DNA of 64,000 nucleotides from Faecalicatena sp. Marseille-Q4148 (GTDB lineage Bacteria; Bacillota; Clostridia; Lachnospirales; Lachnospiraceae), in the NCBI GenBank assembly GCA_018228665.1, contig CP073692.1:2306046-2370045 (forward strand), written 5' to 3'. A model generated the notes under the pieces. It saw only the letters and a program-made list of their open reading frames with translations. It searched no databases and was not told where the DNA came from. Shown piece by piece: positions 2,670 through 31,933 of this stretch (the first letter of the stretch is position 1; each line of letters opens with the position of its first letter). A program made the position numbers and the translations under genes.

Positions 2670-4206
<1,537 letters not shown>

Positions 4207-4347
4207 AAGAAGAAGTAAGAGCTGTTGTCTATTGTTGAGTTATTAAGGGAGTCTTCGGAGAAGGAGTGAAAGAAGAAGTTCTTCACACGGAGTGCGAAGA
4301 ACAGCTTTCGTACTAAGCTCGAGAAGACCTCGCTAAGTACTCAATGC

Positions 4348-4466
4348 TTCTGGTGGCGATGCGCTTAGGGGAGACACCCGTTCCCATCCCGAACACGATG
4401 GTTAAGACCTAAGCGGCCGATGGTACTGCACTGGAGACGGTGTGGGAGAGTAGGTGGCCGCCAGAT
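4348..4466 (+). rRNA. 5S ribosomal RNA, located between 16S and 23S
   Basis: A complete 5S gene. The terminal stem TCTGGTGGC pairs with GCCGCCAGA, and the core CACCCGTTCCCATCCCGAACACG is typical. It sits 145 bases after 16S and 370 bases before 23S instead of after 23S. No second 5S is found in the 180 bases following 23S. Exact ends are uncertain by about two bases. Confidence 0.93.
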
Positions 4467-4836
4467 TATAAAAAAAGATAAACCAAAGGAAGGGATGACA
4501 AAATTCCGGAGGGGAAGCTTTCATATAGATACTGGCAAGAACCTGGGGAGGTTCGAGCTAACCCAACCAACAGGGAAGTGTTGTTTAGGATAGCTGGTTT
4601 TACCAGTGATCAGGGTTCTGAAAAAGTTCAGATTTCTGATGACTGATAAAACAGTCAATGTACCTTGAAAACCGCATATAAGAAATAAATTGATGAAAAT
4701 ATCAAGACATCCGAGGTAATTGTTATTAGATAATAATTATTCGAAACACTGATTCAAATGAATCAAACCTAATTACCAACGCATGCAACGCTATGCATGT
4801 GTAGCTAACGTCCATTCCCGTGGATGAAGGCAAGTT
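4467..4836 (+). other. 5S-23S spacer, no tRNA gene
   Basis: A 370-base transcribed spacer. No cloverleaf and no ORF of coding quality is seen. It contains a CCTTGAAAACCGCATATAAG-type segment at about 4663, typical of rRNA antitermination leaders, and sequence before 4836 that probably pairs with the region after 23S for processing. The 16S-5S spacer (4203-4347) likewise has no tRNA. Confidence 0.7.
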
Positions 4837-7720
<2,884 letters not shown>

Positions 7721-7900
7721 AAGTGAGGTAAAGGATAGGAAAGTGAACGGAGGATGAGATTTCTTGTATGTGGTTTTGAAGGTACACCGAAAGCAACTTA
7801 GTGAATGCGACCGGTAAGGAAGCATGAGCTTAGTGCGAGGTGGTTCGCGAACCTTAATGAGCGTAAGCGAGTTTAGTTGAGCGGACATACCATCTAATAT

Positions 7901-22408: not shown

Positions 22409-24070
22409 TTATTTGCTGTATTTTGCAATCTCACGATTGACTTTATTTCTCAGTGAGATGAGATACATGTCTGATTTTGGATATACTTTAAATGTCAGAG
22501 GATCGGCAAGATCTTCTTCCATTAATTCTACGACATGTTCTTTGCTTGTCAGAGATGCAAGAAGCTTGAATGCTCTTACGTCATTTAATGCTTCATCGTG
22601 AACCATCATACGGATGGATTCTTCCGGATGTCTGTCAGCGCCCGGATATACGAGGAAGGAGTCTCCTGATGGGAATGCATAGCCTGCATCTGTAATTTCG
22701 TATGGATTGATATGTTCTTTGGAGAACTGTGTGTTGTAGAAATTATAGCCCCAGTGAAGGATTCCTTCGATATCAAATTTGAATAACTGTGCGCCGTAGA
22801 TACGGTTTCTTGCTGATGGCATGGACATGAAGCGGTTACTTACTTCATAGAACTGTCCAACGCAGTAGTATGTCCACAGGTGAGGTACATTGTGTTCGAT
22901 GAATGGTTCGATTTCGTTATTTCCAGGAATCGGACGGTCAACAAGTCCATTTTCATAGAAATCATAAGTGGATAATGCATCAAATGTATGATAGCCTTCA
23001 AGCAGATCTCCGAGAGAGTCTTTGGCAGCTTTGAATGTCTCAAAGTGTGCGCCAGGTTCATCGGAAATATGGAAGTATGTAATATCTGCAATGCCCCATT
23101 CTACTAATTTCTCTTTTAATGCCGGGAGATATACATGAAGGAAATTCGTGTATTCGCCGACTGCAGGTGTATGCCATCCGAAGATATTTTCTTCTTTGCC
23201 GTCTACTGTGGCAACGATTCTTGGTGCGTAGTTTGCGCCCCACTGTGAGAACAGATGAGACATTTCAAAATATTTGATGCCGTATTTCTGGCCGAGGTCA
23301 ACCCAGCGTTTCAGACGATCAAAGTTGAAATGATATTCGCCGTTCTCTACTGTGATCTGAACAAGCTGAACTGTTGTACGTTCTCCTCCAACTGCGATAT
23401 CAAGAGGCGGTGTGAACATTGGTGTCAGGAGCATGTTGCATCCGCGGGAAACGTATTCCGCAAGGAAGTTCTCGATGATCTGCCAGTGTTCTTCAGAAAA
23501 TGCATCTACATGATAGTAGTCAGCAAGACAGTCAGCGTGGAACCATTCTGTATGGATCAGATCCTGTTCCGGAAGAACGGCGTCAATGATTGTTACTTTT
23601 GTAGAAGCGCTGCATACGACTTCATTTTCGCTATTGATAAACTGAAGTTCGATTGGATATGTTCCGGCAGCGGCATCTTCAGAAACAATCACATCGAACC
23701 AGACGCTGCGCCATTTGTTCGGATATGCAACAACTGTATTATCTTTTAATTCACGGAGAAGATCCGGATACATTCCGGAACCTGTCTTCAGATAATTGTC
23801 ATCAAGGATTCCGCAGTCAGAGCGTCCGACCGGAACGTATTCAACACTTCTTGCATGAATCATGTTTTCAATCGGGGAAATGACCTTTAATGTTAGATTT
23901 TGTTTCATAAATCCGACATTTTTAATAGCTGCCTGGAAAGAAATCGTCTCGTTCTTTAAAGAAGTCATTACGAGACATTCTGTCTGATATTTTGGTTCTT
24001 CATCTGCAAATACTTTCGCAAGGGAACTTAATAATTTAAGTTCAAAAGTAGGTGCTTCTAATTTTCTCAT
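22409..24070 (-). CDS. DUF4091-domain glycoside-hydrolase-like protein
   Basis: A 553-residue protein without signal peptide. An N-terminal beta domain (about 1-165, with VWFDVIVSEDAAAGTYPIEL) precedes a TIM-barrel-like part and the C-terminal DUF4091 region (about 480-535). Barrel segments include EWFHADCLADYYHV, FEMSHLFSQWGANYAP and ITYFHISDEPGAHFE, whose acidic residues may be catalytic. DUF4091 proteins are linked to carbohydrate degradation. The ATG at 24070 has GTGAGG 9 bases upstream. A minus-strand TATAAT is at 24108-24103. Substrate unknown. Confidence 0.8.
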   Translation of the reverse strand: MRKLEAPTFELKLLSSLAKVFADEEPKYQTECLVMTSLKNETISFQAAIKNVGFMKQNLTLKVISPIENMIHARSVEYVPVGRSDCGILDDNYLKTGSGMYPDLLRELKDNTVVAYPNKWRSVWFDVIVSEDAAAGTYPIELQFINSENEVVCSASTKVTIIDAVLPEQDLIHTEWFHADCLADYYHVDAFSEEHWQIIENFLAEYVSRGCNMLLTPMFTPPLDIAVGGERTTVQLVQITVENGEYHFNFDRLKRWVDLGQKYGIKYFEMSHLFSQWGANYAPRIVATVDGKEENIFGWHTPAVGEYTNFLHVYLPALKEKLVEWGIADITYFHISDEPGAHFETFKAAKDSLGDLLEGYHTFDALSTYDFYENGLVDRPIPGNNEIEPFIEHNVPHLWTYYCVGQFYEVSNRFMSMPSARNRIYGAQLFKFDIEGILHWGYNFYNTQFSKEHINPYEITDAGYAFPSGDSFLVYPGADRHPEESIRMMVHDEALNDVRAFKLLASLTSKEHVVELMEEDLADPLTFKVYPKSDMYLISLRNKVNREIAKYSK

Positions 24071-24234
24071 GATATGATACCTCACTTTTTTATGATAAGT
24101 CTATTATACTCGATATGGGTGGAAAGAGCGATAGAAAAAATACATATATTTATAGAAGAAATGAATATGTACCGAAAGAAAATATATTGAAAAAAATGTC
24201 TTTAAAATGTAAGAGTTTTGTCATGGGATTCACG

Positions 24235-24263
24235 TTGAGATATTTATTCGGTTAAGGTATAAT
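24235..24263 (+). promoter_or_regulatory. Promoter of the dlt-like operon
   Basis: TTGAGA at 24235, 17-base spacer, TATAAT at 24258; the first ATG is 25 bases downstream after AGGAGG. Confidence 0.75.
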
Positions 24264-24287: not shown

Positions 24288-25811
24288 ATGATTCGAAATA
24301 TATTGGATTATCTGGAACATTCTGCAGAATGTTATCCGGATAAAATAGCATTTGCAGATGATAAAGATAAATGTACATATCGGGAACTGCTGGAGAGAGC
24401 AAGAGTGGTTGGAACTTGTCTGGCACAGCAAACGAAGAGAAGAAGTCCGATTCCGGTATTTATGGAGAAGGGTGTTGCCGCAGTGACAGCATTTATGGGA
24501 GTTGTACATGCGGGCTGTTTTTATGTTCTGCTGGATCCGAAACTTCCGGCAGAAAGACTCAGGCAGATTCTGGTTACTCTGGAAGCGGATCTGATACTAA
24601 CATCAGCTTCTTATCATAAACAGTTGGAGAAGCTTGCATTTACCGGGGATGTTGTTGATCTGGAGGATGCATTGGAAGTTGAGCCGCAGGAGGAGATACT
24701 TCGCAGCATACGATCAGGCAGTATGGATACTGATCCGCTGTATGCTAATTTTACATCCGGTTCTACCGGTATTCCGAAAGGTGTTGTAGTATGTCACCGC
24801 TCAGTAATTGATTTTATAGAGGAATTTACACAGTTATTTCAGATTACGTCAGAAGATGTGATTGGCAATCAGGCGCCTTTTGACTTTGATGTATCTGTGA
24901 AGGATATTTATTCGACTTTGAAAACGGGCGCTACGATGCAGATTATTCCGAAACAATATTTTTCTTTCCCGGTGAAGCTGCTTGATTTTCTTGTAGAGCG
25001 GGAAGTTACTACATTAATCTGGGCGGTATCCGCCCTCTGCATCATTACAACGCTGAAAGGCTTTGAATATAAGATACCGACGAAGGTAAAGAAAGTGATT
25101 TTCAGCGGTGAAGTTATGCCGGTGAAGCATCTGAATCTCTGGAGAGAGGCGCTGCCGGATGCAATGTATGTCAATGTCTATGGTCCGACAGAGATTACAT
25201 GCAACTGCACCTACTATGTAGTTGACCGGGAATTTGCCCCGGGAGAGGTGCTTCCGATCGGACGGGCATTTCCGAATGAGAAAGTATTTCTCCTTGATGA
25301 AGAGGATCATCTTGTAACTGACGAAGGGGTAAAGGGAGAGCTTTGTGTAGCCGGAACAGCACTGGCACTTGGATATTATAATAATTCAGAGCAGACGGCG
25401 AAGGCATTTGTCCAGAATCCGCTGAACAGATGTTATCTGGAACGGATTTACCGGACGGGAGATCTGGCTTATTACGGTGCGGACGGGAACCTGTACTTTG
25501 CCTCCCGGAAGGATTTTCAGATTAAACATATGGGACATCGGATTGAACTTGGAGAGATTGAGCTTGGTCTGGAGAAGATTGATGAGATTGTGAGAAATTG
25601 CTGCATCTATGATGAAGAGGAGCATAAGATTATTGCGTTCTATGAAGGGGAGATTGATAAGAAGCAGATTATCCGTGCACTGGGAAAGACGCTTCCGGGC
25701 TTTATGATACCGAATGTATTTGTGCAGCTTGAGACACTTCCGGTTACAAAGAATGGAAAGATTGACCGGAAGCAGTTAAGAGAGAAGTATGAGAACAGTT
25801 TGGAGGAATAA
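24288..25811 (+). CDS. DltA-like amino-acid adenylation enzyme
   Basis: A 507-residue stand-alone adenylation domain that should activate an amino acid as AMP-ester and load it onto the carrier protein at 27100. Core motifs are clear: the phosphate loop FTSGSTGIPKGV near 160, FDFDVSVKDIY near 204 (its Asp should bind the alpha-amino group), VYGPTEITC near 301, YRTGDLAYY near 390 and the catalytic Lys in TKNGKIDRKQL near the C-terminus. Size and layout match DltA (D-alanine-carrier ligase). Substrate could differ, because a decarboxylase-like gene follows at one base distance. Confidence 0.85.
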   Translation: MIRNILDYLEHSAECYPDKIAFADDKDKCTYRELLERARVVGTCLAQQTKRRSPIPVFMEKGVAAVTAFMGVVHAGCFYVLLDPKLPAERLRQILVTLEADLILTSASYHKQLEKLAFTGDVVDLEDALEVEPQEEILRSIRSGSMDTDPLYANFTSGSTGIPKGVVVCHRSVIDFIEEFTQLFQITSEDVIGNQAPFDFDVSVKDIYSTLKTGATMQIIPKQYFSFPVKLLDFLVEREVTTLIWAVSALCIITTLKGFEYKIPTKVKKVIFSGEVMPVKHLNLWREALPDAMYVNVYGPTEITCNCTYYVVDREFAPGEVLPIGRAFPNEKVFLLDEEDHLVTDEGVKGELCVAGTALALGYYNNSEQTAKAFVQNPLNRCYLERIYRTGDLAYYGADGNLYFASRKDFQIKHMGHRIELGEIELGLEKIDEIVRNCCIYDEEEHKIIAFYEGEIDKKQIIRALGKTLPGFMIPNVFVQLETLPVTKNGKIDRKQLREKYENSLEE

Positions 25812-25812
25812 T

Positions 25813-27036
25813 ATGGATAGAGAAGTACTGAAACAGATCAGCGAGCGCTATGAGACGCCGGCATATGTGTTTGATCTGGACATGCTGCGTGAAAGAATCC
25901 GGATGATGGAAGGAATCCTTGGGCGGGCGCAAATCTGCTTTGCCATGAAGGCGAATCCATTCTTGGTGCAGTGCAGGGAGCTTGGGATCAGCAAATATGA
26001 AGTATGTTCGCCGGGGGAATTTCATATCTGCGAGCGGGCCGGAGTTTCACCGGAGAAGATTGTATTGTCAGGAGTCTACAAAGCAGAGGAAGATGTACGT
26101 CACACAATAGAAAGTTGCGGGAATAAAGCAACATATACGATAGAATCAAGGTCACATTTGGAATTGTTGGAGCGTCTGGCAAAGGAGAAAGGAATTGTTC
26201 TTCCGGCGTTGATCCGGGTAACAAGCGGCAACCAGTTTGGGGTAGATGAGGAAGAAATTTGTAAAATAATTGACAGCAGAAACCAATATCCTCATATAGA
26301 GTTTTGCGGTCTGCAGTATTATTCCGGTACGCAGAAGAAGAAACTGTCAAAAATAGAAAAAGAGCTTGTTCATCTGGACGAATTTATACAGAGGTTAGAA
26401 GAAGCGTATGGTTATCAGGCGAAAGAATTGGAATACGGACCGGGATTTTATGTGCCGTATTTCGCCGGAGATCCGGAAGTGGATGATCAGGAACTGCTGA
26501 AAGCATTTGCAGCACTTTTGGAAGGACTGCATTTCCGGGGACATATTACACTGGAAATGGGGCGCTATATTGCAGCGTATTGCGGTTATTATCTGACGCG
26601 GATCGTGGATCAGAAGATCAATAAAGAACAGCGTTATGCAATTGTGGATGGAGGAATTCATCATTTATCTTATTTTGGACAGATGATGGCAATGAAGCTT
26701 CCGCATTATCAGCATATTCCGGCAGAAAATGAGATTAAAGAGAGTGATGCAGCAGAAGAATGGAATATCTGCGGCTCTCTCTGTACCGTCAATGATGTGA
26801 TTGTGAAGCAGCTTCCGCTTATCAATGGAAGGGTGGGAGATCTTCTTGTATTTGAACGGGTAGGAGCTTATTCTGTGACAGAAGGAATCTATCTGTTTTT
26901 AAGCAGGAATCTTCCGCAGATACTTACCTATGAGAAGAAAGAAGGAGTGAAGGTATTGCGTCCGGAAATCGCATCAGATATGCTGAATGACGGAAGCATA
27001 ACCTTAAGAATTTCTGAATCCGTTGCATTGCGGTAA
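25813..27036 (+). CDS. Fold-III PLP decarboxylase, diaminopimelate-decarboxylase-like
   Basis: A 407-residue alanine-racemase/LysA-type enzyme. PLP Lys lies in CFAMKANPF (near 43). The phosphate-binding EYGPGFYVPYF and EMGR (EPGR in LysA) follow, then the cross-subunit Cys box CGSLCTVND and the ERVGAYS motif. These marks favour a decarboxylase over a racemase. The ATG at 25813 follows GGAGG and lies one base after the adenylation gene stop; an upstream ATG at 25789 is inside that gene. Acting on a free or carrier-bound amino acid (as BtrK does in butirosin synthesis) is inferred from context. Confidence 0.8.
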   Translation: MDREVLKQISERYETPAYVFDLDMLRERIRMMEGILGRAQICFAMKANPFLVQCRELGISKYEVCSPGEFHICERAGVSPEKIVLSGVYKAEEDVRHTIESCGNKATYTIESRSHLELLERLAKEKGIVLPALIRVTSGNQFGVDEEEICKIIDSRNQYPHIEFCGLQYYSGTQKKKLSKIEKELVHLDEFIQRLEEAYGYQAKELEYGPGFYVPYFAGDPEVDDQELLKAFAALLEGLHFRGHITLEMGRYIAAYCGYYLTRIVDQKINKEQRYAIVDGGIHHLSYFGQMMAMKLPHYQHIPAENEIKESDAAEEWNICGSLCTVNDVIVKQLPLINGRVGDLLVFERVGAYSVTEGIYLFLSRNLPQILTYEKKEGVKVLRPEIASDMLNDGSITLRISESVALR

Positions 27037-27099
27037 AAACTCATGTATGATGAAATTGTTTATGTATAAAATATTAAGAAAAAGACAGGAGAAAAGAAA

Positions 27100-27327
27100 A
27101 TGGAACAGTTAATTGAAATTTTAGAAGAGATCGCGCCGGATGTGGATTATAACGAATGTACAACATTGATTGATGATGGTTTGTTGGATTCTTTCGCGAT
27201 TTTATCAATTGTAGGGGAATTAGAAGATGCATTTGATATTTCAGTGACACCGGCAGAGATTATTCCGGAGAATTTTAATTCCGCAGAGGCGCTTTGGGCA
27301 ATGGTGCAGAGACTTCAGGAAGAATAA
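27100..27327 (+). CDS. Acyl/peptidyl carrier protein, DltC-like
   Basis: A 75-residue acidic four-helix carrier protein. The Ser that would carry phosphopantetheine is in the DDGLLDSFAIL motif near residue 31. The protein should accept the aminoacyl group made by the adenylation enzyme and present it to the MBOAT protein encoded 13 bases downstream. An AGGAGAAAAG site precedes the ATG. Length matches DltC (about 78). Confidence 0.87.
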   Translation: MEQLIEILEEIAPDVDYNECTTLIDDGLLDSFAILSIVGELEDAFDISVTPAEIIPENFNSAEALWAMVQRLQEE

Positions 27328-27339
27328 AAGGGGGAAGGA

Positions 27340-28878
27340 ATGTCTTTTATATCAATGAAATTCCTGCTGTTCATTTTCTTTGCGGCAGCAGGATATTATT
27401 TGATTCCGAAGAAGTGGCAGTGGGGATGGCTGTTGTTATTCAGCTATCTCTACTATCTTTCTTCCGGATGGAAAATGACTCTCTTTCTCATCTATGTGAC
27501 GATGGTAACATATGGAGCAGGACTTGCGCTTCATGCAGTGGAGGAAAGAGATTCGCTTGATAAGCAAACGAAAAAGCGCCGCAAGAAACAGGTATTGATT
27601 CTGGCGCTTGTTCTTGATTTTGGATTACTGGCGATTTTAAAATATACGAATTTCTTTATTGAGAATCTGGATTATCTATTTCATCTGGAACTGAGCTTCC
27701 GGAACCTGATTCTGCCGATCGGACTTTCTTTCTACACATTTCAGTCGGCGGGATATCTTATGGATGTGTATTGGAAACGGTGTGAGCCGGAGCGCAATCC
27801 GCTGCGATTTGCACTTTTTGTATCATTTTTTCCGCAGATTCTTCAGGGACCGATTGGAAGATTTGACCGTCTGGCACATCAGCTTTATGAATCACATTCC
27901 TTTGACCGTGTGCGGATAGAGCGCGGTGTGCAGAGAATTCTGTGGGGATATTTTAAGAAACTCGTAGTGGCAGATACAGCTGCGATTTTTGTAAATGCTG
28001 CATTTGATGAATATACGACCTATACCGGAATTGCAATCTTTGGCGTGCTTGCCTATTCGGCACAGCTTTATGGAGATTTTTCGGGAGGAATGGATATTGT
28101 AATCGGAATTGCCCAGCTATTTGGAATCGAGCTGGATGAGAACTTTAAACGTCCGTATTTCGCAGTATCGATTACAGACTTTTGGCATCGTTGGCATATT
28201 ACGCTTGGAACATGGATGAAAGATTATATTTTCTATCCGCTGTCTCTGTCAAAATGGATGGGAAAACTTGGAAAATCCGCTAAGAAAATATTTGGAAAGA
28301 CATACGGGAGAGCGCTGCCGATCTGTCTGGCAAATATTGTTGTTTTCCTTGTAGTCGGAATCTGGCATGGCGCTGCATGGAAATTCATTGTGTATGGTTT
28401 GTACAATGGTCTGATCATTGGATTCAGCGGCCTGATGGTTCAGAATTACCGGTCATGGAAGAAACGTCTGCATATCAATGATAAGAGCAATGGATGGAAA
28501 GTATTTCAGATTGTAAGAACCTTTTTGCTTGTGAATATTAGCTGGTTTTTTGACCGGGCAGATACGATTCCGCAGGCGCTTCAGATGATGAAAAATGCTG
28601 TGACGAATTTTGCGCCGAAACAGCTCCTTGAGATTCAGGTAGGAACCGGGAATGCGGGAGTAAAATATACGATTCTGGCGCTTGGAATTCTTGTGATTTC
28701 CTGTCTGGCAGTGTTTGTTGTCAGTCTGTTACAGGAGAGAGGAATACAGATCAGAAATGCATTGGCAGCACGTCCGTGGGTAATTCGATGGATTGCTTAT
28801 ATGGCGCTTCTTATGTCATCGGCTATGCTCGGACAGCCGCCGGATTCTACAGGAGGATTTATTTATGCGCAATTTTAA
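27340..28878 (+). CDS. MBOAT-family O-acyltransferase, DltB/AlgI-like
   Basis: A 512-residue polytopic membrane protein with about 11 helices. The MBOAT signatures are visible: FFPQILQGPIGRF near 164, FWHRWHITLGTWMKDYIFYPLS near 283 and the invariant catalytic His in VVGIWHGAAWKF near 344. It is longer than DltB (about 400) and closer in length to AlgI/PatA-type enzymes. It should move an acyl group from the carrier protein across the membrane to a surface acceptor. Its 3' end overlaps the SGNH gene by 14 bases. Confidence 0.88.
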   Translation: MSFISMKFLLFIFFAAAGYYLIPKKWQWGWLLLFSYLYYLSSGWKMTLFLIYVTMVTYGAGLALHAVEERDSLDKQTKKRRKKQVLILALVLDFGLLAILKYTNFFIENLDYLFHLELSFRNLILPIGLSFYTFQSAGYLMDVYWKRCEPERNPLRFALFVSFFPQILQGPIGRFDRLAHQLYESHSFDRVRIERGVQRILWGYFKKLVVADTAAIFVNAAFDEYTTYTGIAIFGVLAYSAQLYGDFSGGMDIVIGIAQLFGIELDENFKRPYFAVSITDFWHRWHITLGTWMKDYIFYPLSLSKWMGKLGKSAKKIFGKTYGRALPICLANIVVFLVVGIWHGAAWKFIVYGLYNGLIIGFSGLMVQNYRSWKKRLHINDKSNGWKVFQIVRTFLLVNISWFFDRADTIPQALQMMKNAVTNFAPKQLLEIQVGTGNAGVKYTILALGILVISCLAVFVVSLLQERGIQIRNALAARPWVIRWIAYMALLMSSAMLGQPPDSTGGFIYAQF

Positions 28879-29836
28879 AAAGTGGATACCGCCGGTAATA
28901 TTTTTGCTCCTGTTTCTGATTGCAAATGAATGTCTTTTGATGGCGCTGCGGCCATTAAACCTGTTCCGAAATGATATGCACAATCTTCGGACAAAACAGT
29001 ATGACAATGTATATGTGGGAACGTCTCATGGAAAGGCAGCATTTCATCCGGCAGTACTTGATGAAGTGACCGGAAAGAAAAATGTGAATATGTGCATTGG
29101 AGGTCAATGGACGATTGATTCGTATTATATTTTAAAAGAAATGCTTCGTTACCAGAAGCCGGAGAAAGTAATCTATGAGTTGGACCCGGGCTACTGGATC
29201 ACAGAATGTTCGCTGGGGCCGGACTATGCGACTGTCTATGAAGAGATAGAACCATCGCTTGTAAAATTGGAATATTTCCGGGATAAAATGCTGGATATTG
29301 ATTTCCGTGCTACACTTTTTCCGTGGTATGTATACCGTCAGGGTTATAAAAATGTTATAGCGAATCTGAAATTAAGGACAAGCGATGCTTATAAAAATTA
29401 TGAAGATACTCTTTACAGTAATGCAGAATCTGTTTATGGACCGAATGGAGCGTTAAATCTGCAGAGAACAGGAAGACCGCCGCTTGACTATGAATTTGAA
29501 GTGTGGGATGACGATAAGGTAAATGAAGAGTCCGTCAAATATTTCGAAAAGATTCGTAAGCTTTGCGAAGAAGAAGGGATGGAACTGATTGTTGTGACAA
29601 CACCGATCCCGCAGGAGACTTTAGCAAAATATGAAAAAGAATATGAAAATGCCTATGATTTTGTTGCAAAGTATATGGAAGAAAGAGACATTTCATATTA
29701 TAATTTTAATGAAATTGAAATAGAAGGATTTGACAGGTCTGTAAATAGCTTTAATGATTACGAAGGACATATGTATACAGACATGGCAGACATTTTCAGC
29801 AGAAAGCTGGGAGAGATTCTAAAGGGTCATAAGTAA
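28865..29836 (+). CDS. Membrane-anchored SGNH-like protein, DltD-like
   Basis: A 323-residue protein with one N-terminal helix (about 9-27) and an extracellular part. GTSHGKAAFHP near residue 54 carries a Ser in the position of the SGNH nucleophile; the late ND..GHMYTDMADIFS segment could provide Asp and His. This is the architecture of DltD and of AlgX-type partners of MBOAT enzymes, which complete acyl transfer to the final polymer. The ATG at 28865 has AGGAGG 5 bases upstream, inside the MBOAT gene; the open frame before it is not used. Confidence 0.75.
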   Translation: MRNFKKWIPPVIFLLLFLIANECLLMALRPLNLFRNDMHNLRTKQYDNVYVGTSHGKAAFHPAVLDEVTGKKNVNMCIGGQWTIDSYYILKEMLRYQKPEKVIYELDPGYWITECSLGPDYATVYEEIEPSLVKLEYFRDKMLDIDFRATLFPWYVYRQGYKNVIANLKLRTSDAYKNYEDTLYSNAESVYGPNGALNLQRTGRPPLDYEFEVWDDDKVNEESVKYFEKIRKLCEEEGMELIVVTTPIPQETLAKYEKEYENAYDFVAKYMEERDISYYNFNEIEIEGFDRSVNSFNDYEGHMYTDMADIFSRKLGEILKGHK

Positions 29837-30484: not shown

Positions 30485-30517
30485 CCAGAAGTAGCGTAAC
30501 GAAGATTGAGAAGAAAG

Positions 30518-31933
30518 ATGATGAAGAGATTAGATGAAAAACTGGCAGAATATTCTGTCGGAGACAGTTATCCGTTTCATATGCCGGGGCATAAGAGAAA
30601 CGGGAAGCTGCCATATCCATTGCCGTATGGGCTAGATATTACGGAAATTGACGGATTTGATGACTTACATCATGCAGAAGGAATTTTAAAAGAGGCACAG
30701 GAAAGAGCAGCAGAAATTTATCATGCAGAGGAGAGCCATTTTCTTGTCAATGGAAGTACCGTTGGAATATTAAGTGCAATTCTCGGAACAACGAAGCGGG
30801 GAGATAAGATTCTTGTGGCGCGCAATTGTCATAAATCCGTCTACCATGCCATTGAAATGAATGAACTGCAGCCGGTGTATATTTATCCGGAATTTCTTAC
30901 CGAGATGCATTTGAATGGAGAGATTTCAGCAGAAGAGATTGAAAGAGCGCTCCGGGAACATGAGGGAATACGGGCAGTTATGATTGTATCTCCAACTTAT
31001 GACGGAGTAGTTTCAGATGTGCGTGCTATTGGGGAAATCGTTCATAGATATGAAATCCCGCTGATCGTTGATGAGGCACATGGAGCTCATTTCGGATTTG
31101 GAACAATATTCCCGGAGAATTCGAATATATGTGGAGCGGATATTGTAATTCATAGTCTTCATAAAACATTGCCGTCTATGACACAGACGGCAATTCTTCA
31201 TATTAATGGAGAACGTATAAATCGGGGGCGGGTACGAAAATATCTGCACATGCTGCAGAGCAGCAGTCCGTCCTATGTTTTGATGGCATCCATAGATGCG
31301 TGCATGGATTTTCTCCAGACAGAAGGAGAAAAATGGTTTTGTGAATATGAAAGCATGCTTCTTGCGGCGTGGGAGAGACTTTCGGGTTTAAAGCATTTGA
31401 AGGTAATAAAAACGGAGCAGTTTGATCTGTCAAAGATTATCATCTCGACATTGAACTGCAATATGACAAGCGGAGAATTGTACCACATTCTTCTGGAAAA
31501 ATATCATCTTCAGATGGAAATGAAAGCAGAAAGTTATGTACTTGCCATGACGACAGTATGTGACAGCGAAGAGGGAATGAAACGTCTTGTGGAAGCGCTG
31601 TTTTCTATTGATGAAGAACTGAAAGAACAGAACTTTGATACAGTGTTTACAGAAGAACGGTTCCCGGAAGCGGATGTATGTATGACAAGCGCAGAGATAG
31701 AACGCCTTCCGGAAATAGATTTTGAGATAAGACCGTGGGAAGACTGTGAGGGTTGGATCTCGGCGGAATATGCATATCTTTATCCACCGGGAATTCCGCT
31801 TCTTGCGCCGGGAGAGAGGATAAATCGGGCAATCATTGACTGGCTTATGCATTATCGGGAAATGGGCTTCTCGGTTGAAGGATCTATGACAGAAGGAATG
31901 TTAAAAGTAACAGGAGAGAGAAACAATGAATAA
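30518..31933 (+). CDS. Orn/Lys/Arg decarboxylase-family PLP enzyme
   Basis: A 471-residue fold-I PLP enzyme like B. subtilis YaaO/SpeA. The N-terminal HMPGHKRNG motif, the DEAHGAHFGF loop near 190 and the PLP-binding Lys in HSLHKTLPS near 214 are clear. The C-terminal third has the small decarboxylase domain. It lies directly before tmk and overlaps it by 8 bases, as yaaO does in Bacillus. It should make a polyamine or diamine (from arginine, lysine or ornithine); substrate is not decided by sequence. ATG at 30518 or 30521 is likely; a TTG lies at 30506. Confidence 0.87.
   Translation: MMKRLDEKLAEYSVGDSYPFHMPGHKRNGKLPYPLPYGLDITEIDGFDDLHHAEGILKEAQERAAEIYHAEESHFLVNGSTVGILSAILGTTKRGDKILVARNCHKSVYHAIEMNELQPVYIYPEFLTEMHLNGEISAEEIERALREHEGIRAVMIVSPTYDGVVSDVRAIGEIVHRYEIPLIVDEAHGAHFGFGTIFPENSNICGADIVIHSLHKTLPSMTQTAILHINGERINRGRVRKYLHMLQSSSPSYVLMASIDACMDFLQTEGEKWFCEYESMLLAAWERLSGLKHLKVIKTEQFDLSKIIISTLNCNMTSGELYHILLEKYHLQMEMKAESYVLAMTTVCDSEEGMKRLVEALFSIDEELKEQNFDTVFTEERFPEADVCMTSAEIERLPEIDFEIRPWEDCEGWISAEYAYLYPPGIPLLAPGERINRAIIDWLMHYREMGFSVEGSMTEGMLKVTGERNNE

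What the first reader, a model, noticed from the sequence alone, without database searches (positions are those of the whole stretch)
24288..29836. Variant dlt-like operon with an embedded LysA/BtrK-type decarboxylase
Seen: adenylation enzyme, fold-III PLP enzyme (starts 1 base after it), carrier protein, MBOAT and SGNH protein in one tight run behind one promoter. Established: DltA, DltC, DltB and DltD put D-Ala on teichoic acids; BtrK, a LysA homolog, decarboxylates an amino acid while bound to a carrier protein. Inference: here an amino acid is activated, loaded, decarboxylated and then transferred to a surface glycan, adding an amine-bearing group other than D-Ala (GABA- or beta-alanine-like). 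The PLP enzyme keeps decarboxylase marks (CGSLC, GAYS). The MBOAT is AlgI-length. I know of no described system with this gene set.
Basis: partly seen in the sequence, partly recalled or inferred. Interest (0 to 1): 0.82.

Follow-up and report, generated by a model that had tools for sequence, protein, structure and literature searches.

The report
Dlt-like operon with embedded carrier-acyl decarboxylase
A probable gut bacterium carries five genes that appear to load an amino acid onto a carrier protein, strip off its carbon dioxide and pass the resulting amine-bearing group outside to decorate a surface sugar polymer; the gene set recurs in many relatives, few of which have the standard D-alanine system.

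Summary
Window 24288-29836 has, in one tight run, an adenylation enzyme, a fold-III PLP enzyme, a carrier protein, an MBOAT and a DltD-like SGNH protein. It is not strain-specific: of 63 relative loci with enough flanking DNA, 44 keep all five genes. In 299 genomes of one family, 55 have the PLP enzyme, 52 of those a related MBOAT, and 13 of 299 canonical DltD. BtrK, a carrier-bound glutamate decarboxylase, is the best sequence match; by fold it ties with LysA. The PLP family lacks two LysA motifs. The adenylation pocket is nearly invariant and unlike DltA's. All 58 MBOATs aligned end in a shuttle-type hexapeptide with its Tyr. In nine loci the A-PLP-ACP genes sit in a capsule-type cluster beside an LpxD-like acyltransferase. 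Best reading: an acidic amino acid is loaded, decarboxylated on the carrier and transferred as an amine-bearing ester to an envelope glycan. The acyl group (beta-alanyl, GABA or lysyl) and the acceptor are not shown. New variant of a known kind.

The parts
24235..24263 (+). promoter-like site TTGAGA-17-TATAAT ahead of the run
   Evidence: 11 of 12 matches, but site number in the region not above chance
24288..25811 (+). adenylation enzyme (stand-alone AMP-binding), 507 aa, pocket code DVKSISVCNK
   Evidence: TIGR01733 342.7 bits, over its 317.4 cut-off; DltA model TIGR01734 305.4, under 559.85; D, V, K, S, S, C, N positions identical in 73 of 73 rows
25813..27036 (+). fold-III PLP decarboxylase, BtrK-like, 407 aa
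27100..27327 (+). carrier protein, 75 aa, phosphopantetheine Ser31 (LLDSFA)
   Evidence: Ser in 77 of 77 rows
27340..28878 (+). MBOAT acyltransferase, 512 aa, catalytic-type His343
   Evidence: Pfam MBOAT 56.5 bits; the two solved sequences matched at E up to 1 are both DltB, best E 6.9e-24; His in 58 of 58 rows
28858..28875 (+). C-terminal acyl-shuttle hexapeptide FIYAQF of the MBOAT
   Evidence: Tyr at position -4 and Phe at -1 in 58 of 58 MBOAT rows; FXYXXF motif described in PMC12148441 (passages)
28865..29836 (+). SGNH/DltD-like transferase, 323 aa, one N-terminal helix, Ser54/Asp298/His302; its ATG overlaps the shuttle Tyr codon

Best explanation
The operon makes an amine-bearing acyl group on a carrier protein and exports it to decorate an envelope polymer. 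Steps: (1) the adenylation enzyme activates an amino acid that carries an extra carboxylate and loads it on the carrier (inferred from the pocket); (2) the BtrK-like PLP enzyme decarboxylates it while it is bound to the carrier (inferred from homology, missing LysA motifs and gene order); (3) the MBOAT moves the acyl group from the carrier to the Tyr of its own C-terminal FIYAQF, as shown elsewhere for PatA and for DltB with DltX (inferred from motifs); (4) the DltD-like SGNH protein takes it on its Ser and esterifies an extracytoplasmic glycan (inferred). Most likely acyl group: beta-alanyl from Asp (about 0.4); then GABA from Glu (about 0.2), lysyl from diaminopimelate (about 0.15) or another (about 0.25). 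These shares are my estimates, given that the scheme itself is right.
For: Recurrent five-gene set in different orders. PLP enzyme and MBOAT co-occur in genomes: 52 of 55 PLP genomes have the MBOAT against 87 of 244 others; with a stricter MBOAT score 17 of 55 against 2 of 244. BtrK nearest solved relative by sequence; BtrK and the family share CTxxD and GTQ and lack RPxxY. 27 of 28 genomes have a better-scoring LysA elsewhere. The pocket residues are constant and differ from a canonical DltA at five places, among them Met to Lys, Cys to Ser and Ala to Asn. Shuttle Tyr, MBOAT His, SGNH Ser/Asp/His and carrier Ser are conserved. In nine loci the A, PLP and ACP genes instead sit in a cluster with an LpxD-like acyltransferase, an aminotransferase and a Gfo/Idh oxidoreductase, eight of them also with a WecB-like epimerase, which fits an acyl group handed over from the carrier. 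Precedent for the order load-then-decarboxylate: VinN-VinL-VinO, passages of PMC11284099.
Against: No biochemistry. Fold does not separate BtrK from LysA (Z within 1). The family differs from BtrK too: Glu204 and Pro207 (80 of 81) around the Gly loop where BtrK has Asn and Gly, and Gln165 where BtrK and LysA have His. The pocket loop is the same length in 73 of 73 rows and as in a canonical DltA, unlike the shortened loop reported for VinN, so side-chain activation of Asp is not directly supported. 87 of 244 genomes without the PLP enzyme also have an MBOAT at the loose threshold. 13 of 63 long loci have A and ACP but no MBOAT near, and three lack the adenylation gene beside the PLP gene. 14 of 57 SGNH hits in the loci are weak, 20 to 50 bits. 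Described MBOATs with a fused shuttle motif use acyl-CoA and no carrier (PMC12148441 passages), so this pairing has no direct precedent there.
Confidence: 0.66

Rival explanations
1. The PLP enzyme acts on a free amino acid first and the adenylation enzyme then loads the decarboxylated product (as IdnL3 then IdnL1 in incednine biosynthesis).
For: A precedent is described in PMC11284099 (passages). LysA-type enzymes often act on free substrates (recalled), and the fold cannot tell.
Against: The pocket has Lys205 and Asn306 in 73 of 73 rows where a canonical DltA has Met and Ala, which suits a substrate that still has its second carboxylate; CTxxD and the absence of RPxxY are shared with BtrK, whose substrate is carrier-bound (its PDB name).
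Confidence: 0.15
2. The acyl group is lysyl: diaminopimelate is loaded by one carboxylate and its other end decarboxylated on the carrier. This is a sub-case of the best explanation with another product.
For: The pocket loop is of the ordinary length (compared); the PLP enzyme is a relative of LysA.
Against: Activating free lysine would be simpler; the LysA motifs recalled to hold the distal end are absent.
Confidence: 0.12
3. It is an ordinary D-alanylation operon whose PLP enzyme is an alanine racemase that supplies D-Ala (some database records name relatives alanine racemase).
For: Several relatives carry that name; Pfam Ala_racemase_N gives a weaker hit, 46.3 bits.
Against: The C-terminal domain is the decarboxylase sheet domain Orn_DAP_Arg_deC with Cys321 and Asp325 in 81 of 81; DltA, DltB and DltC models are all far under cut-off; the D-Ala pocket residues are changed.
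Confidence: 0.04
4. The A, PLP and ACP genes feed cytosolic sugar N-acylation or another product only, and the MBOAT/SGNH neighbours use a different donor.
For: Nine loci show these genes in a capsule-type cluster without MBOAT nearby, and L058 has A and PLP in a neighbourhood with ketosynthase III-like genes.
Against: In 44 of 63 long loci all five genes stay together, in several orders, and 52 of 55 PLP genomes have the MBOAT; acetylating MBOATs use acetyl-CoA and need no carrier (PMC12148441 passages).
Confidence: 0.03

Closest known systems
Dlt pathway (DltA, DltB, DltC, DltD, DltX)
   Same: adenylation enzyme, carrier, MBOAT and DltD-fold SGNH protein in one operon; acyl-Tyr shuttle motif
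   Different: extra PLP decarboxylase; shuttle motif fused to a longer MBOAT instead of a DltX microprotein; different pocket; DltA, DltB and DltC models under cut-off and no DltD model hit
MBOAT-SGNH acetylation pairs (PatA/PatB; AlgI with AlgJ/AlgX)
   Same: MBOAT with a fused C-terminal FXYXXF (N. gonorrhoeae PatA FIYANF) and an SGNH partner
   Different: own carrier protein and adenylation enzyme; amino-acid derived donor instead of acetyl-CoA
BtrI/BtrJ/BtrK of butirosin (mostly recalled; BtrK named) and VinN/VinL/VinO of vicenistatin (PMC11284099 passages)
   Same: carrier protein plus PLP decarboxylase acting after loading
   Different: those serve antibiotics; here the module is joined to an envelope-type acyltransferase. 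BtrJ is recalled to be an ATP-grasp ligase, not an adenylation enzyme
Exosortase-A-associated AMP ligase and PLP decarboxylase (TIGR03098, TIGR03099)
   Same: ligase and PLP decarboxylase of the same superfamilies, named for the exosortase A system
   Different: both far under cut-off here (202.9 of 592.35; 178.6 of 478.45)
AlmE glycylation of lipopolysaccharide (PMC11253843 passages)
   Same: Dlt-like adenylation logic applied to an envelope glycan
   Different: glycine substrate; no decarboxylase known to me (recalled)

Membership tests
Canonical Dlt D-alanylation | DltA over curated cut-off | tested here: not met
   305.4 of 559.85 bits
Canonical Dlt D-alanylation | D-Ala methyl pocket (Leu, Met, Cys) | tested here: not met
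   Val202, Lys205, Ser273 in 73 of 73 rows, against Leu, Met, Cys in a canonical DltA from G012; roles from PMC11253843 passages
Canonical Dlt D-alanylation | DltB and DltC over cut-off | tested here: not met
   166.7 of 375 and 38.3 of 68 bits
Canonical Dlt D-alanylation | DltD by sequence model | tested here: not met
   no NCBIfam hit for the SGNH protein at 0.001; the DltD model TIGR04092 finds nothing at 0.001 in 27 of 28 genomes with the PLP gene
Canonical Dlt D-alanylation | DltD fold | tested here: met
MBOAT-SGNH envelope acyltransferase pair | MBOAT with conserved His and C-terminal FXYXXF | tested here: met
   window ends FIYAQF; His343 58 of 58; Tyr -4 and Phe -1 58 of 58, but 14 of 58 lack the first Phe (13 LIYAGF, 1 PIYAGF)
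MBOAT-SGNH envelope acyltransferase pair | SGNH partner with Ser and Asp-His | tested here: met
   Ser54 58 of 58, Asp298 and His302 57 of 58 with 1 gap
MBOAT-SGNH envelope acyltransferase pair | acyl-Tyr intermediate | not testable with these tools
   needs labelled donor and mass spectrometry
BtrK/VinO carrier-bound decarboxylase | nearest solved relative by sequence | tested here: met
   BtrK 115.4 bits, next non-BtrK 99.5
BtrK/VinO carrier-bound decarboxylase | BtrK-like active-site marks without LysA distal-site marks | tested here: met
   CTxxD and GTQ 81 of 81; RPxxY 0 of 81 against 27 of 29 LysA. That the LysA motifs bind the distal end of diaminopimelate is recalled
BtrK/VinO carrier-bound decarboxylase | decarboxylates the loaded carrier | not testable with these tools
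   no assay
LysA | over curated cut-off | tested here: not met
   176.8 of 297.9. Of the 27 genomes with another LysA only one copy is over the cut-off (487.6), the rest 265-294 bits, so the cut-off alone is weak
LysA | CExxD and RPxxY | tested here: not met
   Glu at that column 29 of 29 LysA, Thr 81 of 81 here (2 of the 81 have a CExxD string elsewhere in the protein)
Alanine racemase | racemase-type C-terminal domain | tested here: not met
   decarboxylase C-terminal domain found instead, no racemase C-terminal domain at 0.001
VinN-type beta-amino-acid adenylation enzyme | loop one residue shorter | tested here: not met
   same length as the DltA of G012 and 12 residues in 73 of 73 rows; VinN itself was not aligned
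Exosortase-A-associated dCO2ase_PEP1 | over curated cut-off | tested here: not met
   178.6 of 478.45

The most novel reading that the evidence does not exclude
Many Lachnospiraceae use, in place of D-alanine, an omega-amino-acyl ester (beta-alanyl or 4-aminobutyryl) made by decarboxylation on a carrier protein. The same A-PLP-ACP cassette is interchangeable between an MBOAT/SGNH exit to surface polymers and an LpxD-like exit to capsule sugars, so a natural-product trick has become a general envelope-tailoring module in a major gut family.
Probability: 0.45. Interest if true: 0.86.

Novelty: new variant of a known kind. Interest (0 to 1): 0.74.

Why it matters
D-alanylation is a textbook way in which Gram-positive bacteria add positive charge to their surface. 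Canonical DltD was found in only 13 of 299 sampled genomes of this family, and a study of eight gut commensals, most of them Lachnospiraceae by its own words, counted no complete dltABCD in any of them (PMC10877564, passages with its Table 2). The decarboxylase of this operon is in 55 of the 299, so the operon is a candidate for a similar function with a different chemical group. If right, it adds an unknown surface modification to gut bacteria, with possible bearing on cationic peptides, host recognition and phages, and it makes the question testable with one mass measurement.
Full report
What is there. The five genes lie at the stated place, all on the + strand, with gaps of 1, 63 and 12 bases and then a 14-base overlap. 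Families: AMP-binding, Orn_Arg_deC_N plus Orn_DAP_Arg_deC, a weak PP-binding hit, MBOAT, and a last protein without a Pfam hit.

Is it conserved? A search with the PLP enzyme scored 5900 relatives at E 1e-3 or better among the 7996 candidates scored. A scan of one genome per species found 226 relatives among 259 pattern matches; the best 80 were kept. In those 80 loci the order A-PLP-ACP-MBOAT-SGNH appears in 42, A-PLP-ACP alone in 18, MBOAT-SGNH-A-PLP-ACP in 4, PLP-ACP-MBOAT-SGNH in 4 and A-PLP alone in 4, with rarer orders in the other 8; many loci are cut by contig ends. Among the 63 loci with at least 1.6 kb before and 3.2 kb after the PLP gene, 60 have A, 61 ACP, 49 MBOAT, 47 SGNH and 44 all four (SGNH was counted from 20 bits up, and 14 of 57 SGNH hits lie under 50 bits). 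Three of the 63 lack A nearby (L014, L020, L032); for two of them (L020, L032) an adenylation enzyme with the same key pocket residues lies elsewhere in the genome (L085, L089).

Genome sample. In 299 genomes from the family of G001 (Dorea phocaeensis, L001), 55 have the PLP enzyme at E 1e-60 and 139 have the MBOAT at E 1e-80. 52 of the 55 are among the 139, against 87 of 244 others (p 7e-17); with MBOAT matches of about 458 bits or more, 17 of 55 against 2 of 244 (p 4e-12). 35 of 56 PLP hits have a listed MBOAT within 8 kb, 26 of these 235-454 bases away (the MBOAT listing was cut). Relatedness is not corrected for in these p-values. In 398 genomes drawn from the phylum only 4 have the PLP enzyme, two of them already in the family sample, so it is concentrated in or near this family. 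Canonical DltD (TIGR04092) is in 13 of 299, 3 of them also with the PLP enzyme. Of 28 genomes with the PLP gene that I examined (of the 80 loci), 1 has DltA over cut-off and 1 has DltD, the same genome (G012).

The adenylation enzyme. It passes the general amino-acid adenylation model but not DltA. Positions matching the classical ten-residue code read DVKS[ILM]S[VLI]CNK in 73 rows, one with a gap at the last site; the mapping of the window onto the code was made by eye from recalled landmarks. A canonical DltA from G012 has Leu, Met, Cys, Val and Ala where the window family has Val, Lys, Ser, Cys and Asn. Review passages tie the Leu, Met and Cys to the D-Ala methyl group. A Lys and an Asn in the pocket suit a substrate carboxylate; Lys at this place in glutamate-activating domains is recalled. 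The loop that is one residue shorter in VinN is not shortened relative to DltA here, so the product cannot be read from the pocket.

The export half. All 58 MBOAT rows (the window and 57 from 56 loci) end with Tyr at -4 and Phe at -1: 39 FIYAQF, 13 LIYAGF, 2 FMYAQF and 1 each PIYAGF, FIYANF, FTYVQF and FQYMQF. PMC12148441 (passages read) describes the FXYXXF motif as the acyl shuttle of DltX and of MBOATs with two extra helices, shows acetylation of its Tyr in PatA and quotes FIYANF for N. gonorrhoeae PatA. It also says that the pathways with a fused motif lack a carrier protein; a carrier together with a fused motif, as here, is thus a mix of the two described layouts. The SGNH model (pLDDT 94.1) is nearest to DltD; Ser54, Asp298 and His302 are conserved. 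The SGNH start codon lies partly inside the shuttle Tyr codon (read); an ATG sits at that place in 51 of 57 relatives, and the SGNH frame agrees with it in 37 of these.

A second exit. Nine loci (L039, L049, L053, L054, L065, L067, L069, L070, L074) carry A, PLP and ACP inside a polysaccharide-type cluster. Matches to the L054 genes are a hexapeptide-repeat acyltransferase directly before A, a Gfo/Idh oxidoreductase and a DegT aminotransferase in nine of nine, a WecB-like 2-epimerase in eight and a UDP-sugar dehydrogenase in five; L069 is cut by its contig end. In some (for instance L067) another gene, a GtrII-like glucosyl transferase, stands between PLP and ACP. The acyltransferase is LpxD-like in L054 and L039, the two I scanned, but under the curated cut-offs (131.4 and 116.1 of 207 bits). 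The set resembles the route to UDP-2,3-diamino-mannuronic acid (recalled), with the three genes at the N-acylation step. It supports the view that they make a carrier-bound acyl group.

Literature. Searches gave listings only; passages were read in PMC12148441, PMC11284099, PMC11253843 and PMC10877564. None of the listings or passages that I saw describes this gene set. The library holds open-licence papers only.

Verdict. A real, widespread variant of the Dlt/MBOAT-SGNH kind, for which I saw no description, with a BtrK-type decarboxylase gene between the loading and transfer genes. The order of chemistry, the acyl group and the acceptor are inference.

Noticed in passing
window 28858-28878: The SGNH start codon overlaps the codon of the MBOAT acyl-shuttle tyrosine; an ATG is there in 51 of 57 relatives and the SGNH frame agrees with it in 37 of these.
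   Followed up: partly
L054 1042-18971 and eight similar loci: A, PLP and ACP genes embedded in a capsule-type cluster beside an LpxD-like acyltransferase and aminotransferases.
   Followed up: partly
L049 2919-4109, L053 1626-2894, L074 1113-2279: A second fold-III decarboxylase, FslC/LysA-like and under the curated cut-offs, in the same capsule-type clusters.
   Followed up: no
L058 2164-11170: A and PLP genes about 6 kb after a carrier gene, with two ketosynthase III-like genes and an SDR gene between, perhaps a natural-product cluster.
   Followed up: no
window 2670-7722: rRNA operon with the 5S gene (4349-4466) between 16S and 23S, an unusual order (that it is unusual is recalled).
   Followed up: no
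window 22409-24085: GH123-type glycoside hydrolase on the other strand just before the operon.
   Followed up: no
window 30506-31933: Orn/Lys/Arg decarboxylase homologue of another PLP fold (OKR_DC_1), downstream of the operon and ahead of a gene that looks like thymidylate kinase (by eye).
   Followed up: no
L009 11592-17892: Two MBOAT-SGNH pairs follow one A-PLP-ACP set, so two acceptors may be served by one donor.
   Followed up: no
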